Assembly: GCF_000744835.1 (NCBI RefSeq)
Contig: NZ_JQMS01000001.1
Coordinates: 930,001 to 994,000, forward strand
Length of the DNA: 64,000 nucleotides
DNA from: Flavobacterium sp. 83
GTDB lineage: Bacteria > Bacteroidota > Bacteroidia > Flavobacteriales > Flavobacteriaceae
Direction: 5' to 3'
Under the pieces are notes generated by a model, which saw only the letters and a list, made by a program, of their open reading frames with translations, was not told the DNA's origin and searched no databases. The position numbers and the translations under genes were made by a program. Below, in pieces: positions 52,627-58,434 of this stretch (its first letter is position 1; every line of letters starts with the position of its first letter).

Positions 52627-52642
52627 AGTTTCACGTGGAACA
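52627..52642. other. parS-like site 1
   Basis: AGTTTCACGTGGAACA matches the bacterial parS consensus in 15 of 16 positions (first base A instead of T). It lies just beyond the mnmG stop and may load ParB. Confidence 0.75.
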
Positions 52643-52664
52643 AATTGATTTAAGATTATAGATC

Positions 52665-54536
52665 TTATCGTCCCATATAAATCAACAACACCGACACATC
52701 ACTTGGTGAAACACCGCTAATCCTTGATGCTTGAGAAATAGTTACGGGACGAATCTTGCTTAATTTTTGTTTTGCTTCAATTGACATTGATTTAATTTTA
52801 TTATAATCAAAATTCTCAGGGATTTTTACATCTTCCAAGCGTGTCAATTTATCTGCGTTGTTTCTTTCTTTTTCAATATAACCCGAATACTTTACTTGAA
52901 TCTCGGCTTGTTCCAAAATCTCCTGATCCAAGTTGTTCTCCGCAACATAAGCTGCTACCTTTTCGAATTTCATGATGTCTTCCAAATCAATTTGCGGACG
53001 AGAAAAAACTTTGAACATCTTATCTCCCTGAGTAATCAGCGCCGTATCTTTTGATTCTAAAATAGGATTTGCTTCCGCAATCGAAACACTCGTTTCTTTG
53101 AAGAAAGCCACCATTTTTTCGGATTCATTTAGTTTGTGCTCCATTCTGCGCAAACGTGCTTCAGAAGCCAAACCAATTTCATGCGACATTGGCGTTAATC
53201 TAAAATCAGCATTATCCTGACGAAGCAACGTTCTGTATTCTGCACGAGAAGTGAACATTCTATAAGGCTCTTCTGTTCCTTTAGTAATTAAGTCATCAAT
53301 TAAAACTCCAATATACGCTTCGTCTCTTTTTAAAATTAACGGTGCTTTTTCATGTACTTTTAAATGCGCATTTATTCCAGCCATCAATCCTTGAGAAGCT
53401 GCTTCTTCATATCCGGTTGTTCCGTTTATTTGTCCAGCGAAATACAATCCTTCAACAAGCTTTGTTTCCAAAGTATGTTTCAATTGTGTCGGTGGGAAAT
53501 AATCATATTCGATTGCATAACCTGGTCTAAAAAATTTTACATTTTCAAAACCTACTACAGAACGCAGCGCTTTGAATTGAATATCCTCAGGAAGAGATGT
53601 AGAAAAACCATTTACATAAACCTCGCACGTATTCCATCCTTCTGGTTCTACAAATAATTGGTGTCTTTCTTTATCAGCAAAACGGTTAATTTTATCTTCA
53701 ATTGAAGGACAATATCTTGGACCAAGACTTTTTATTCTGCCGTTAAACATCGGAGACCGATCAAAACCTTCTCTCAAAATGTCGTGAACATCGAGAGACG
53801 TATACGTCATGTGACACGATTTTTGAATAACCAACGGTGACGTTACATCTGAATACGAAAACTTATCTGGCTTAGCATCTCCTTTTTCTTCGTTCATTTT
53901 CGAATAATCTAAAGAACGTCCATCGACTCTCGGGGGCGTTCCTGTTTTCATTCTTCCTGCTTGAAAACCGGCATTCACTAAATCTTCGGTAATTCCATAA
54001 GCAGCACTCTCGCCTGCTCTTCCTCCACCAAATTGTTTTTCGCCAATATGAATCAACCCGTTTAGAAAAGTTCCATTGGTTAACACAACAGCTTTTGAAC
54101 GAATCTCCACTCCTAACGAAGTGCGAATCCCTTTTATTTTTCCGTTTTCAATAATCAACCCCTTTACCATCTCTTGATAAAAATCAAGGTTTGGAGTTCC
54201 TTCCAGCATCATTCTCCATTCCTCAGCAAAACGCATACGGTCACTTTGAACACGCGGCGACCACATTGCAGGTCCTTTGGACTTGTTCAGCATCTTGAAC
54301 TGAATAGCAGTTCTGTCTGAAACAATTCCAGAATATCCACCCAACGCATCAATCTCGCGCACAATTTGCCCTTTGGCAATTCCGCCCATCGCAGGGTTGC
54401 ATGACATCTGGGCAATGTTCTGCAAACTCATTGTTACCAATAAAGTTTTCGAACCCAAATTTGCAGCAGCGGCAGCAGCCTCAGAACCTGCATGTCCTGC
54501 GCCAACAACTATCACATCATATTCATCTAGAAACAT
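52665..54536 (-). CDS. mnmG: tRNA uridine-5-carboxymethylaminomethyl(34) synthesis enzyme MnmG
   Basis: MnmG (GidA) uses FAD with MnmE to modify the wobble uridine of several tRNAs. The FAD-binding motif is VVGAGHAGSEAAAAAAN near the N-terminus, GGIAKGQIVREIDALGG follows, and the C-terminal GidA-associated domain includes ISQASRISGVSPSDVSVLLIY. The 623-residue length is normal. In many bacteria this gene lies next to the replication origin, and here it is flanked on both sides by parS-like sites. Confidence 0.97.
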   Translation of the reverse strand: MFLDEYDVIVVGAGHAGSEAAAAAANLGSKTLLVTMSLQNIAQMSCNPAMGGIAKGQIVREIDALGGYSGIVSDRTAIQFKMLNKSKGPAMWSPRVQSDRMRFAEEWRMMLEGTPNLDFYQEMVKGLIIENGKIKGIRTSLGVEIRSKAVVLTNGTFLNGLIHIGEKQFGGGRAGESAAYGITEDLVNAGFQAGRMKTGTPPRVDGRSLDYSKMNEEKGDAKPDKFSYSDVTSPLVIQKSCHMTYTSLDVHDILREGFDRSPMFNGRIKSLGPRYCPSIEDKINRFADKERHQLFVEPEGWNTCEVYVNGFSTSLPEDIQFKALRSVVGFENVKFFRPGYAIEYDYFPPTQLKHTLETKLVEGLYFAGQINGTTGYEEAASQGLMAGINAHLKVHEKAPLILKRDEAYIGVLIDDLITKGTEEPYRMFTSRAEYRTLLRQDNADFRLTPMSHEIGLASEARLRRMEHKLNESEKMVAFFKETSVSIAEANPILESKDTALITQGDKMFKVFSRPQIDLEDIMKFEKVAAYVAENNLDQEILEQAEIQVKYSGYIEKERNNADKLTRLEDVKIPENFDYNKIKSMSIEAKQKLSKIRPVTISQASRISGVSPSDVSVLLIYMGR

Positions 54537-54599
54537 CTTCTTGTATGATTTAATCCTTCACTTGTGTTCCGGATTGTAATTTTGAAATCTATTTTATTT

Positions 54600-54615
54600 T
54601 GTTCCACGTGAAACA
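54600..54615. other. parS-like site 2
   Basis: TGTTCCACGTGAAACA is a perfect match to the parS consensus known from Bacillus and many other phyla. It lies in the 152-bp gap between ybeY and mnmG. Confidence 0.9.
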
Positions 54616-54645
54616 TTGCATTGTCAATTCTGCTAAATATAAAAA

Positions 54646-54661
54646 TGTTCCACGTGAAACA
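54646..54661. other. parS-like site 3
   Basis: A second perfect TGTTCCACGTGAAACA lies 46 bp from site 2, start to start, in the same orientation. Confidence 0.9.
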
Positions 54662-54688
54662 CTTTGGCTTTTGATATTAAAAACAGAC

Positions 54689-55108
54689 TTACTGTTCCAC
54701 GTGGAACAGTGCTAATTTTTCGTCTTCTTTACTGCGCATTAAAAGTTCGTCGGTCTCACCTTTGTCTTTGTATCCACAGTAGTGCAAAACACCGTGAACT
54801 AATACACGCTTCAATTCCTCTTCAAAAGGCACGTTAAAATCAACGGCATTGTCTTTTACCCTTTCGATAGAAACAAAAACATCGCCGCTTAACTCATTCC
54901 CCATCGTGTAGTCAAAACTAATAATATCAGTTAATGTGTCGTGATTAAGATATTCCAGATTGATTTTATGCAAATACTCATCGTCGCAAAAGATGTAGTT
55001 TATCTCTCCCTCTTTCTTGTTTTCTGAAGTAATAACATTAGACAGCCACAAAGCAACAGCTTCTTCATTGTCTAAAGTAAAGTCGGTTTCGTAATTAAAA
55101 TTGATCAT
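54689..55108 (-). CDS. ybeY: Endoribonuclease YbeY
   Basis: YbeY is a metal-dependent RNase that helps mature 16S rRNA. The metal site is HGVLHYCGYKD, close to the family HGxLHxxGYDH pattern. The 139-residue length is typical. The C-terminus LFHVEQ is encoded by the palindromic parS-like site 4, so a DNA-binding constraint and a protein end share the same bases. The start overlaps the DUF4175 stop by 4 bp (ATGA). Confidence 0.93.
   Translation of the reverse strand: MINFNYETDFTLDNEEAVALWLSNVITSENKKEGEINYIFCDDEYLHKINLEYLNHDTLTDIISFDYTMGNELSGDVFVSIERVKDNAVDFNVPFEEELKRVLVHGVLHYCGYKDKGETDELLMRSKEDEKLALFHVEQ
54691..54710. other. parS-like site 4, a perfect 20-bp palindrome
   Basis: ACTGTTCCACGTGGAACAGT is fully palindromic over 20 bp and contains the parS core TGTTCCACGTGGAACA. 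It lies inside the last codons of ybeY. Confidence 0.85.
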
Positions 55109-58100
55109 TTTTTATTAAAATATTCTTGAACCTTTTGATTAAAATTCGAGCGCAAAGGTAAGGATTGTCTATTTAATATTTCTATGCTATTTAAATAATC
55201 TAATAAAGCAGCTGGCAGTGCATTAGATTGATTATTAAACTCCTTTTTATTGGTTTCTGATTGGCGTTTATTTTCTTCCCCTTGTTGCTGCAAAGCCGTA
55301 TTCAATTTTAATAATTCCTGCTTCACATTTAGAATCTTTTGGAGCGTTTCGTTTTTAAACCCTTTGTTTAACAATTGCTTTTCGATTTGCTTCATTTGTT
55401 CCAAAGCACTTTGCCCATTACCACCGAAACCCTGCTTGTTAAGTTCATTTTGCAAAGACTCTCGCAGCTGTTTTTGCTCTTTGTAAATTTCCATTATAGA
55501 TTGGGCATCACCTTCTCCATCTCCATCCTGACTTTCCCCTTTACTAGATTTTCCGTCTTTACCGCTTTCCCCTTTTGAGCCATCACCAGGTTTTGGGCCT
55601 TTTTTAATTCCTTCTTTCATCTTCTCCCCCAATCCTTCATGCTTTTTAATAATATCTTGCAATTGCATTCCCTGTCCTTGACCCGGTTTCGGCTTTCCAG
55701 AACCCATACCAGACAATGACATTTGCATCGTGTTAAACATATCGCTAAGCATGTCTGCCAATTTATTTGCAGCAGCTATCGAATATTGCTGATGAGATAA
55801 TCCTTTTGGAACTTGAGCATCAGATAAACTCTCTAACGATTTATCTATATTGTAATGTACATTACCGATTTCTTTAGTCACCTCTTCAGCAATTTTAGGG
55901 TTTCTTAAGGACATTACAAATAAACTGTCATCAACATGTTTGAAGTGCTGTTTTAAATCCTGCTGGATTTTTATGTTTTTATTATAGCCGGGAGAACCTG
56001 CTTTATGCCCTATAAACTGATTCATTAAATCTTCTTGTGACAAAGAAAACGCTAATAAATTATCCAGAATCTGTCGCAACATAGCAACATCCTCTTGCAG
56101 TTCTTCCTTCTCATTTCCTTCCAAAGTTTGTGCCATTTTCGCCGCCATCTCTTTCATTTTTTTCGAGGCGCTTTTTTGATTTTGCTTAGCCTTCGCTTTA
56201 TTGTCTTTCTTCAATTCTTCAGAAGCCTTCTTTAAATCTTCATCGATACTTTTTTCTTTAGCAGCATCTTTAGGAAGATCCATCGGTGATTTTAATTCAT
56301 TATTTTCCTTTTCTAAATCTTTTAAATCTTCTTGAATCTTGTCAAAATCTGAATTGATGTTTTCTTGTTTATCCGATTTGTTTTCCTTTTCATCATCGGA
56401 TAATATATCTTGCTTTTCAGAAAGTTTGTCCAACTTATCACCTAATTGTTCCGCTTTCTTTTCTACATAATACTTCTTAGTCAACTCAACTAATTGTTCT
56501 AAATTTTTAATTTGATTTTTACTGTTTTGTTTAAATTTATCTAACTTAGAAAGTAGTTCTTCGTTTTTAATTTTATCGTTCAATTCTTTTAATTCATCCA
56601 ATAATTTTTGGTTCTTATTCAAATCTTTATCGGCTTTATCAATTCGTTTTTGCAATTCTTCTTTTAGCTTATCCTTTTCATCCGTTTTGAATTTATCTAA
56701 ATTATCTTTCATTTTCTCCGAAAACTGTTTCATCATTTCATCTTGTTGCTTTTGGCGTTTGATAAAATCATTTACTTTTTGTTGATCTTTAAATTCAAGG
56801 TTGTCTTTTTCTTTTCCTGTTTTTTGTATTTTTTCAATTTCGGCTATTTGCTTGTCTTGATTTTTTAAGGACTTCTCTAAACCATTAATATTATCATTTT
56901 GCTGTTGTAAAACTTCATCTTCTTTCTCTTCGTCCGTAGAAACACGATTCGAGAAAACGGAAGATTTTGTGCTTTTAAAATAATGAATGGCATCGTTGTC
57001 ATACACTTCAAAATAATAATCATACGACACTCCTTGCTCAACTGGAAGATTACTTGGGAACGAAAATACAAATTGATCGACTGCTGCTTTTTTAACAGCA
57101 ATTGTTCCACGTTTAGCAGATTGTGGTTTGTTTCTTTCGTAATAGACAATCTGAAGTTTAGACAATCCATAATCATCAGAGATTTGGCCTAAAACATAGT
57201 TTCTTACTGCCTTCAAACTGTCTGGCACATTGTTTACAGTAATTGCTGGAAACTGATCTTTGACAATTGTAAGCTGATAATTCAGTTTTTCGTAGTTTTT
57301 TACCTTATCATTCGAAGTAAGAATTTGATAATCTGTATTTTGAAGTATATTTTTAGATAAAGTGAAGCTATTTTCAGTTTTCGAAAAGGGAATATTAGAC
57401 TTTCCGTCCATCCAATCTACTTTTTGTGTTGCTTGGGTATCCATTTTCCAAGTTACACGAGTTCCTTCGGGAATAATGGCGTTACCACTTCCTTTGATTG
57501 TTTCCGATTTTTTATTCAAGTAGGAAGGAAAGTTCAATTGCATTTCGAAATTAGCAATCGCCGGCACCGTAATTACTTTCAATTCATAATCCGATGAAGA
57601 AACAGTATTTCCCTCCACGTGGAACAAAACAGCTGCAGAAGGCTTTAAAATTTTAAATTCAAACTCCCCTGCTTTCGTGTTTTCCATAAAATAACTTTCG
57701 TCACCAATGAAAATCATGGCATTCTCAGGAACAACTTTACCTACTGTTTTAACTCGAAGTATAAAATCTTTTCCTTGTTCGGTTTGCAGGTTTGAATTTA
57801 AAACCACAAACTTAAAAGGAGCCGGCGGTAAGAAAGCCGAATTGAAATGCACTACTCTATTAAAACTTTGCGAAATCACATTGCTGTTACCGGAAAAATA
57901 AAAGACAGCAAAAAACAAAATAGGAATAAATGCTAACGGTAAATATTTTTGGTTTGTATTAAAGTTTATAGCATTGCCAAAAGGGATTGGTTGTAACGCA
58001 TTGGCTTTTTGTGCAATTGATGCGAGTAACAATTCAGATTTATTCTGATGGTTATCAGAATCCGCCAGTTGCAGAAAATTCGTCAGCTTGTCGCTCACTT

Positions 58101-58434
58101 CCGTGAAATGATTTCCAATAATAGCCGAAGCCTGATTGTAATCAATACCTTTTTTGAGTTTGAATAATTTAAATATTGGAAATAAAATAAATCGGGACAA
58201 CAAGTACACTTCTACTCCCACAAAAACCCAAAATAAAATCGTTCTTCCCATTGGCTTAAGCCAAAGAAAATATTCGACAAAAAGCGTGAATAGAAAATAC
58301 AACAATCCTAAACCAATAAAGAAAATGATTCCTCGTATCAATTCATTGGTATAAAACTTTCGGATAAAAGCTTCCAGTTTCTGATAAATAAAATTTTGAT
58401 TTTCCAAAACGTAAACTTTGTTTGTTGTAACCAA
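55105..58434 (-). CDS. DUF4175-family large membrane protein
   Basis: The 1109-residue protein has two membrane segments near the N-terminus (about 30-52 and 60-80) and a third near 168-186, followed by periplasmic beta-rich regions (about 200-500). A very long Lys/Glu/Asp/Gln-rich coiled-coil section (about 505-790) and a Gly/Lys/Ser-rich low-complexity stretch (about 925-990; GKPKPGQGQGM) follow. This order matches the DUF4175 family of Bacteroidota, whose function is unknown. It is coupled to ybeY by a 4-bp overlap. A degenerate parS-like site lies in its coding region. Confidence 0.85.
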   Translation of the reverse strand: MVTTNKVYVLENQNFIYQKLEAFIRKFYTNELIRGIIFFIGLGLLYFLFTLFVEYFLWLKPMGRTILFWVFVGVEVYLLSRFILFPIFKLFKLKKGIDYNQASAIIGNHFTEVSDKLTNFLQLADSDNHQNKSELLLASIAQKANALQPIPFGNAINFNTNQKYLPLAFIPILFFAVFYFSGNSNVISQSFNRVVHFNSAFLPPAPFKFVVLNSNLQTEQGKDFILRVKTVGKVVPENAMIFIGDESYFMENTKAGEFEFKILKPSAAVLFHVEGNTVSSSDYELKVITVPAIANFEMQLNFPSYLNKKSETIKGSGNAIIPEGTRVTWKMDTQATQKVDWMDGKSNIPFSKTENSFTLSKNILQNTDYQILTSNDKVKNYEKLNYQLTIVKDQFPAITVNNVPDSLKAVRNYVLGQISDDYGLSKLQIVYYERNKPQSAKRGTIAVKKAAVDQFVFSFPSNLPVEQGVSYDYYFEVYDNDAIHYFKSTKSSVFSNRVSTDEEKEDEVLQQQNDNINGLEKSLKNQDKQIAEIEKIQKTGKEKDNLEFKDQQKVNDFIKRQKQQDEMMKQFSEKMKDNLDKFKTDEKDKLKEELQKRIDKADKDLNKNQKLLDELKELNDKIKNEELLSKLDKFKQNSKNQIKNLEQLVELTKKYYVEKKAEQLGDKLDKLSEKQDILSDDEKENKSDKQENINSDFDKIQEDLKDLEKENNELKSPMDLPKDAAKEKSIDEDLKKASEELKKDNKAKAKQNQKSASKKMKEMAAKMAQTLEGNEKEELQEDVAMLRQILDNLLAFSLSQEDLMNQFIGHKAGSPGYNKNIKIQQDLKQHFKHVDDSLFVMSLRNPKIAEEVTKEIGNVHYNIDKSLESLSDAQVPKGLSHQQYSIAAANKLADMLSDMFNTMQMSLSGMGSGKPKPGQGQGMQLQDIIKKHEGLGEKMKEGIKKGPKPGDGSKGESGKDGKSSKGESQDGDGEGDAQSIMEIYKEQKQLRESLQNELNKQGFGGNGQSALEQMKQIEKQLLNKGFKNETLQKILNVKQELLKLNTALQQQGEENKRQSETNKKEFNNQSNALPAALLDYLNSIEILNRQSLPLRSNFNQKVQEYFNKK
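57611..57626. other. Degenerate parS-like site 5
   Basis: CCCTCCACGTGGAACA matches the parS palindrome in 13 of 16 positions, with the intact core CCACGTGGAACA. It lies in the DUF4175 gene, where it encodes LFHVEG. It may bind ParB weakly or be a decayed site. Confidence 0.45.

What the first reader, a model, noticed from the sequence alone, without database searches (positions are those of the whole stretch)
52627..54710. Cluster of parS centromere-like sites around mnmG and ybeY
Four 16-bp sites of the type TGTTYCACGTGRAACA lie at 52627, 54600, 54646 and 54693; two are perfect consensus and one is a perfect 20-bp palindrome. A 16-bp near-perfect site is very unlikely by chance in AT-rich DNA, and four in 2.1 kb is a cluster. 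This is the pattern of ParB loading centres near replication origins. MnmG (GidA) is a frequent origin-side gene. No ParA or ParB gene is in the window, so the link to a partition system is inference.
Basis: partly seen in the sequence, partly recalled or inferred. Interest (0 to 1): 0.8.

Follow-up and report, generated by a model that had tools for sequence, protein, structure and literature searches.

The report
Bacterial centromere flanking mnmG
The window holds the chromosome's centromere-like parS sites, about 16 kb from the likely replication origin of a Flavobacterium-like bacterium; this is an ordinary kind of element, but its tight attachment to the tRNA-modification gene mnmG is strikingly conserved among relatives.

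Summary
Three exact TGTTYCACGTGRAACA sites (54600, 54646, 54693) and one single-mismatch site (52627) bracket mnmG; they are the only matches with 0-1 mismatch in the 3.79-Mb chromosome. Third-codon-position GC skew flips from minus to plus about 16 kb away, at an AT-rich spacer between rnr and rpiB just beyond the window. The genome has one ParB over the family cut-off, beside parA, 0.82 Mb away, with the residues that mark parS binders rather than Noc; dnaA is 0.95 Mb away. So this is most probably the chromosome's parS centromere, near an origin that is not at dnaA. The layout is deeply conserved: in 79 of 79 named loci, mostly Flavobacterium, the ybeY-mnmG gap holds 2-10 sites, one of them always in the end of ybeY; 77 also have one past mnmG and none has one inside it. 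Outside the family 31 of 37 loci examined show the mnmG link. SMC over the cut-off and ScpA were not found. ParABS is a known kind; parS in Bacteroidetes is in print. I did not find the mnmG bracketing in my paper searches. ParB binding is untested.

The parts
52627..52642 (.). parS-like site AGTTTCACGTGGAACA (1 mismatch), just 3' of mnmG
   Evidence: a site past this end of mnmG, 6-316 bp away, is found in 77 of 79 named loci
54600..54615 (.). parS site TGTTCCACGTGAAACA (exact), between mnmG and ybeY
54646..54661 (.). parS site TGTTCCACGTGAAACA (exact), between mnmG and ybeY
54693..54708 (.). parS site TGTTCCACGTGGAACA (exact), core of a 20-bp perfect palindrome 54691-54710; lies in the last codons of ybeY (...LFHVEQ-stop)
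   Evidence: a site overlapping the ybeY end is found in 79 of 79 named loci, in the same register in 76
52665..54536 (-). mnmG (gidA), the gene bracketed by the sites
   Evidence: Pfam GIDA PF01134, 528 bits
54689..55108 (-). ybeY; its 3' end carries one parS site
   Evidence: Pfam YbeY PF02130, 100.3 bits
51660..52511 (-). methyltransferase gene on the far side, conserved neighbour (called from a TTG start)
   Evidence: Pfam Methyltransf_23, 100.9 bits; neighbour in relatives
55105..58434 (-). large ORF (1109 aa) upstream of ybeY, weak DUF4175 match, conserved neighbour
   Evidence: 20.4 bits, below the curated cut-off of 27.3

Best explanation
These are the chromosome's parS sites: loading sites for the ParB encoded 0.82 Mb away in a parA-parB pair. 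ParB binds each 16-bp palindrome and spreads on neighbouring DNA, so that mnmG and its surroundings lie inside a ParB-DNA complex, and ParA moves the two copies of this region apart soon after the nearby origin has fired. The origin is most probably the AT-rich rnr-rpiB spacer about 16 kb away. Shown here: sites, uniqueness, position near a skew flip, ParA and ParB genes, ParB specificity residues, conservation. Inferred from the known behaviour of ParABS: binding, spreading, segregation. SMC loading, another usual role of ParB, is doubtful here because no SMC over the family cut-off and no ScpA were found.
For: Sites real and confined to this place. Third-codon-position skew flips from minus to plus between the 5-kb bins at 0.995 and 1.000 Mb; in the coarse sample 9 of 9 rows before it are negative and 9 of 9 rows from 1.0 to 2.6 Mb positive; the opposite flip is at 3.02-3.05 Mb. 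One ParB over the TIGR00180 cut-off, with ParB_N, HTH_ParB and ParB_C domains and a ParA gene directly before it. At the four ParB/Noc specificity positions it has R-Y-K-G; [quoted passage not shown] Conservation: 135 of 149 family genomes have an exact site, with no reversed-pattern control hit; of the 14 without, 13 have sites within 2 mismatches on both sides of mnmG. In an alignment of the window with four relatives the sites are conserved islands in a diverged spacer.
Against: No binding data. parA-parB is 0.82 Mb from the sites. ParB is present in all 40 genomes tested, also in the 20 with no exact site, so a presence-absence test of the link was not possible; of 19 of those 20 searched at 1 mismatch, 6 had no site. 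Plain GC skew is noisier than third-position skew: several stretches in the minus half are slightly positive, and one of 8 bins past the flip is slightly negative. Of 8 genomes looked at, the flip is unclear in 2, G062 and G201.
Confidence: 0.95

Rival explanations
1. The palindromes are operator sites of a transcription regulator of mnmG, ybeY or their neighbours, not a centromere.
For: They sit at both ends of mnmG, and the upstream cluster lies in the spacer before the mnmG start codon.
Against: One site is inside the coding end of ybeY and one is downstream of mnmG; the sequence is the degenerate parS consensus used in PMC10197239 (passages); the sites are near the skew flip; in G017 three sites lie by the methyltransferase gene and none by mnmG, which is 0.28 Mb away.
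Confidence: 0.03
2. The sites serve a Noc-like nucleoid occlusion protein rather than ParB.
For: Noc sites differ from parS at two positions only (PMC7383237 passages).
Against: The genome's single ParB-family match has R and G, not Q and R, at the two switching positions; Noc sites are scattered round the Bacillus chromosome (PMC4331003, abstract), these are not.
Confidence: 0.01
3. The linkage to mnmG is only inherited gene order around the origin, without any function in the bracketing itself. (This is about why the sites are here; it is compatible with their being parS.)
For: The ybeY-mnmG-methyltransferase order is itself conserved; in six out-of-family loci without mnmG within 8 kb, ybeY or rnr is still nearby in 4, so the origin district as a whole is conserved.
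Against: Sites keep to both edges of mnmG and stay out of it in named loci (77 and 79 of 79), while the spacer diverges.
Confidence: 0.75

Closest known systems
Chromosomal parS sites of ParABS systems (Livny et al. 2007, cited in PMC10197239 and PMC7333895; itself not held here)
   Same: Same 16-bp palindrome, clustered, origin-proximal, with a parA-parB pair in the genome.
   Different: parAB and dnaA are both far from the cluster; sites bracket mnmG; up to 10 sites in one short spacer in relatives.
parS clusters of gut bacteria, two Bacteroidetes among them, in PMC10197239 (passages read)
   Same: parS clusters and skew mark the origin and dnaA does not always; no known condensin was found in the two Bacteroidetes.
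   Different: That paper reports Hi-C on other genera; the passages I saw do not mention mnmG.
Noc/NBS of Bacillus
   Same: Homologous protein family and near-identical 16-bp site.
   Different: Specificity residues and chromosome distribution do not fit.

Membership tests
parS / ParABS | 16-bp palindromic site close to TGTTTCACGTGAAACA | tested here: met
   3 exact and 1 one-mismatch match to the degenerate form
parS / ParABS | sites clustered, not scattered | tested here: met
   all 4 matches with 0-1 mismatch in the genome lie within 2.1 kb
parS / ParABS | origin-proximal | tested here: met
   third-position GC skew flip 16 kb away; the origin itself is inferred from skew
parS / ParABS | ParB with N-terminal, HTH and C-terminal domains | tested here: met
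parS / ParABS | ParA ATPase encoded with ParB | tested here: met
   L011 6490-7257 and 7262-8161, AAA_31 domain
parS / ParABS | ParB carries the parS-type residues R173 and G201 (Caulobacter numbering) | tested here: met
   R and G at the aligned positions (PMC7383237 passages); the numbering was transferred by offset from the shared motif
parS / ParABS | ParB binds the sites in the cell | not testable with these tools
   needs ChIP-seq or a binding assay
parS / ParABS | SMC-ScpAB recruited by ParB (common, not defining) | tested here: not met
   8 SMC matches, none over the TIGR02168 cut-off; no ScpA match at E 0.001; MukB- and MksB-type condensins not searched
Noc / NBS | Q173 and R201 equivalents | tested here: not met
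   R and G instead
Noc / NBS | sites scattered over the chromosome | tested here: not met
   (the parS pattern was searched; the NBS pattern itself was not)

The most novel reading that the evidence does not exclude
In Bacteroidota mnmG is held inside the centromere by selection: ParB loaded from both edges forms a complex over this one gene, coupling mnmG expression or the complex itself to origin duplication, in lineages that lack SMC-ScpAB and whose parAB and dnaA have moved away. Together with this, the origin uses variant initiator boxes of the type TTATTAACA in the rnr-rpiB spacer.
Probability: 0.12. Interest if true: 0.65.

Novelty: new member of a known kind. Interest (0 to 1): 0.4.

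Why it matters
It gives a simple and widely shared landmark for the centromere and origin district in Flavobacterium and many relatives, where dnaA is misleading, and it points to ParB-parS systems that may work without SMC-ScpAB. The mnmG bracketing makes a testable question of why one tRNA-modification gene stays with the centromere.

Tried and rejected
Noc-type sites and operator sites were considered and set aside (see rivals). The three 3-mismatch matches in the window were dropped as chance level. Classical DnaA boxes: TTATCCACA with up to 1 mismatch occurs 32 times in the window against 19.95 expected (more than in any of 100 shuffles, largest 29), but only one match is exact and no 500-bp stretch examined holds more than 2; the candidate origin spacer has one. 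A ParB presence-absence test failed for lack of any genome without ParB among the 40 searched. GC skew in G062 and G201 gave no clear flip. Paper searches for parS with Flavobacterium, Bacteroidetes, gidA, mnmG or centromere and for oriC or DnaA box listed no title or abstract on mnmG-flanking parS or on a Flavobacterium origin; apart from the papers cited in the report only the listings were seen, and Livny et al. 2007, the likeliest place, could not be read.

Full report
OBSERVATION. Three are exact matches to TGTTYCACGTGRAACA and one has a single mismatch. The site at 54693 is the core of a perfect 20-bp palindrome and lies in the end of the ybeY coding frame: the last codons read L-F-H-V-E-Q-stop. 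The chromosome is one contig of 3,790,620 bases and the window is bases 930,001-994,000 of it. Of 7 matches with up to 2 mismatches in the whole chromosome, these four are the only ones with 0 or 1; the other three have 2 mismatches, close to the reversed-pattern control with 2 matches.

ORGANISM. The nearest named relative by YbeY is Flavobacterium sp. AED (98% identity). Of the 80 loci listed, 74 carry Flavobacterium in the title; the other six are titled Flavobacteriaceae (4), Bacteroidetes (1) or [Flexibacter] (1) (my count). That the window is from a Flavobacterium is inference, and so is the phylum name Bacteroidota for what the tool calls only 'phylum'.

ORIGIN. I sampled 19 stretches of 20 kb and one of 18 kb plus the window, then 11 further stretches. 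Third-codon-position GC skew of the top strand is negative in 9 of 9 rows from base 1 to 0.994 Mb, positive in 9 of 9 rows from 1.0 to 2.6 Mb, near zero at 2.9 Mb, and negative in 3 of 3 rows from 3.2 Mb. Plain GC skew is noisier and is slightly positive in a few stretches of the minus half. In 5-kb bins 14 of 14 before 1.000 Mb are negative and 7 of 8 after it positive, so the first flip lies at 1.000 Mb, 16 kb from the sites and 6 kb beyond the window; the opposite flip is at 3.02-3.05 Mb, which makes the arms unequal (about 2.0 and 1.8 Mb). At the flip lies a 1,056-bp spacer of 22% GC (1,000,439-1,001,494) between divergent rnr and rpiB (gene names are my reading of the sequences). dnaA is at 1.938 Mb, 0.95 Mb from the sites, so it does not mark the origin; PMC10197239 makes the same point for gut bacteria (passages).

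The divergent rnr-rpiB pair recurs in all 12 genomes that I chose (9 of the window's genus, 3 others of the family), 15.6-32.2 kb from the nearest exact site; in G102 and G309 the two genes are 2.8 kb apart. A flip from minus to plus at or near it is seen in G000, G102, G212, G309, G120 and G136, though in G102, G212 and G309 only one or two 4-kb bins lie beyond it; it is unclear in G062 and G201. The other four were not examined. The 8-mer TATTAACA is enriched about 49-fold over sampled genome in these 12 regions (41 copies, in 12 of 12; for G102 and G309 the 1,500 bp before rpiB were used). In the window's own spacer TTATTAACA with up to 1 mismatch occurs 11 times, against a mean of 2.5 and a maximum of 7 in 300 shuffles, and at most 8 in any equal window of the 662 kb of sampled genome (windows starting at a match). 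I read these as candidate variant DnaA boxes; that is inference.

PARTITION GENES. One ParB match is found, over the family cut-off, at 0.167 Mb, with parA directly before it. ParB has the N-terminal, HTH and C-terminal Pfam domains and matches solved ParB structures (best 7bnk, 2.9e-51). At the positions that separate ParB from Noc it has R, Y, K, G. According to passages of PMC7383237 R and G are absolutely conserved in ParB, and about 28% of ParB already have K or R at the third position. So the genome has a protein suited to bind these sites. SMC (TIGR02168) gave 8 weak matches, none over the cut-off, and ScpA (PF02616) none, in keeping with the report that two gut Bacteroidetes lack known condensins (PMC10197239, passages). 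MukB- and MksB-type condensins were not searched.

CONSERVATION IN THE FAMILY. Of 149 family genomes, 135 have at least one exact site, 1-3 each, and the reversed control has none. Of the 14 without an exact site, 13 have sites within 2 mismatches on both sides of mnmG. At 2 mismatches the reversed control has 0-6 matches per genome in these 14, so it is the position beside mnmG, not the count, that tells. The exception, G099, had no MnmG match at the threshold used. Around mnmG, sites within 2 mismatches and 700 bp lie on both sides in 30 of 30 loci nearest to the window's MnmG and in 18 of 20 loci taken from the most divergent end, with no reversed-control hit in either set. With the 13 above and 4 overlaps this is 57 of 59 distinct genomes, out of 147 with an mnmG match; the 59 were chosen by rank or by lack of an exact site, not at random. 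Exceptions: G017, where three sites lie around the methyltransferase gene and mnmG is 0.28 Mb away, and G103, where the one site found lies inside the mnmG frame. Going from sites to genes, 29 of 30 site-centred loci hold mnmG.

CONSERVATION IN NAMED LOCI. Of 80 named loci found through YbeY, 79 hold mnmG (the last is cut off by its contig end). All 79 have 2-10 sites (up to 1 mismatch) between the end of ybeY and mnmG; in all 79 one of them overlaps the coding end of ybeY, in the same register as in the window in 76. 77 have a site 6-316 bp past the far end of mnmG. Of the two that do not, one contig ends there (L298) and one lacks it within 920 bp (L272). At 1 mismatch no site lies inside mnmG or elsewhere in these loci of about 6.4 kb, and the reversed control has none at 2 mismatches. 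These 80 are the best of more than 587 relatives, so near kin are favoured. In an alignment of the window with four relatives the sites stand as conserved islands in a spacer that otherwise diverges; only one of the four covers the far site.

BEYOND THE FAMILY. In a phylum sample 144 of 198 genomes have an exact site (one genome had a control hit). Of 19 phylum genomes without an exact site, 13 have a one-mismatch site (21 matches in all, against 5 for the control), and the locus given for each is beside mnmG in 13 of 13, with MnmG identity down to 46%; 6 have none. So 31 of 37 loci examined outside the family show the link. ParB is present in all 40 genomes searched for it, with or without exact sites.

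HOW IT WORKS. By established knowledge of ParABS (review PMC7333895, abstract and passages), ParB nucleates on parS, spreads on neighbouring DNA and is moved by ParA, so that the origin region separates first. Applied here this is inference resting on sequence. What differs from textbook loci is that parAB and dnaA lie elsewhere while mnmG has stayed. In many bacteria gidA, parA and parB are neighbours at the origin (recalled); the present arrangement may be a remnant of that order.

VERDICT. The element is an ordinary chromosomal centromere of a known kind. The points of interest are the depth of the mnmG bracketing, the parS site written into the end of ybeY, the apparent lack of SMC-ScpAB, and the candidate non-classical origin next door.

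Noticed in passing
L060 15875-16558 (just beyond the window's right end): A tRNA-Cys gene is followed by a tandem array of 6.9 copies of an 88-bp unit, each carrying a piece of the tRNA's 3' half.
   Followed up: no
L060/L017, chromosome 1,000,439-1,001,494: Candidate replication origin between rnr and rpiB with TTATTAACA-like boxes instead of classical DnaA boxes; the gene pair and the motif recur in 12 of 12 chosen genomes.
   Followed up: partly
whole genome G000: No SMC over the family cut-off and no ScpA, although ParB and parS are present.
   Followed up: partly
window 57611-57626: CCCTCCACGTGGAACA inside the large ORF upstream of ybeY keeps 13 of 16 parS positions; possibly a decayed site, but at chance level.
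   Followed up: no
L155 and L244 (genome G017): mnmG lies 0.28 Mb away from three parS sites that stay around the methyltransferase gene; a natural case that separates the sites from mnmG.
   Followed up: partly
L254-L332: The number of parS-like sites between ybeY and mnmG varies from 2 to 10 among loci that are mostly of one genus, so centromere size can change fast.
   Followed up: no
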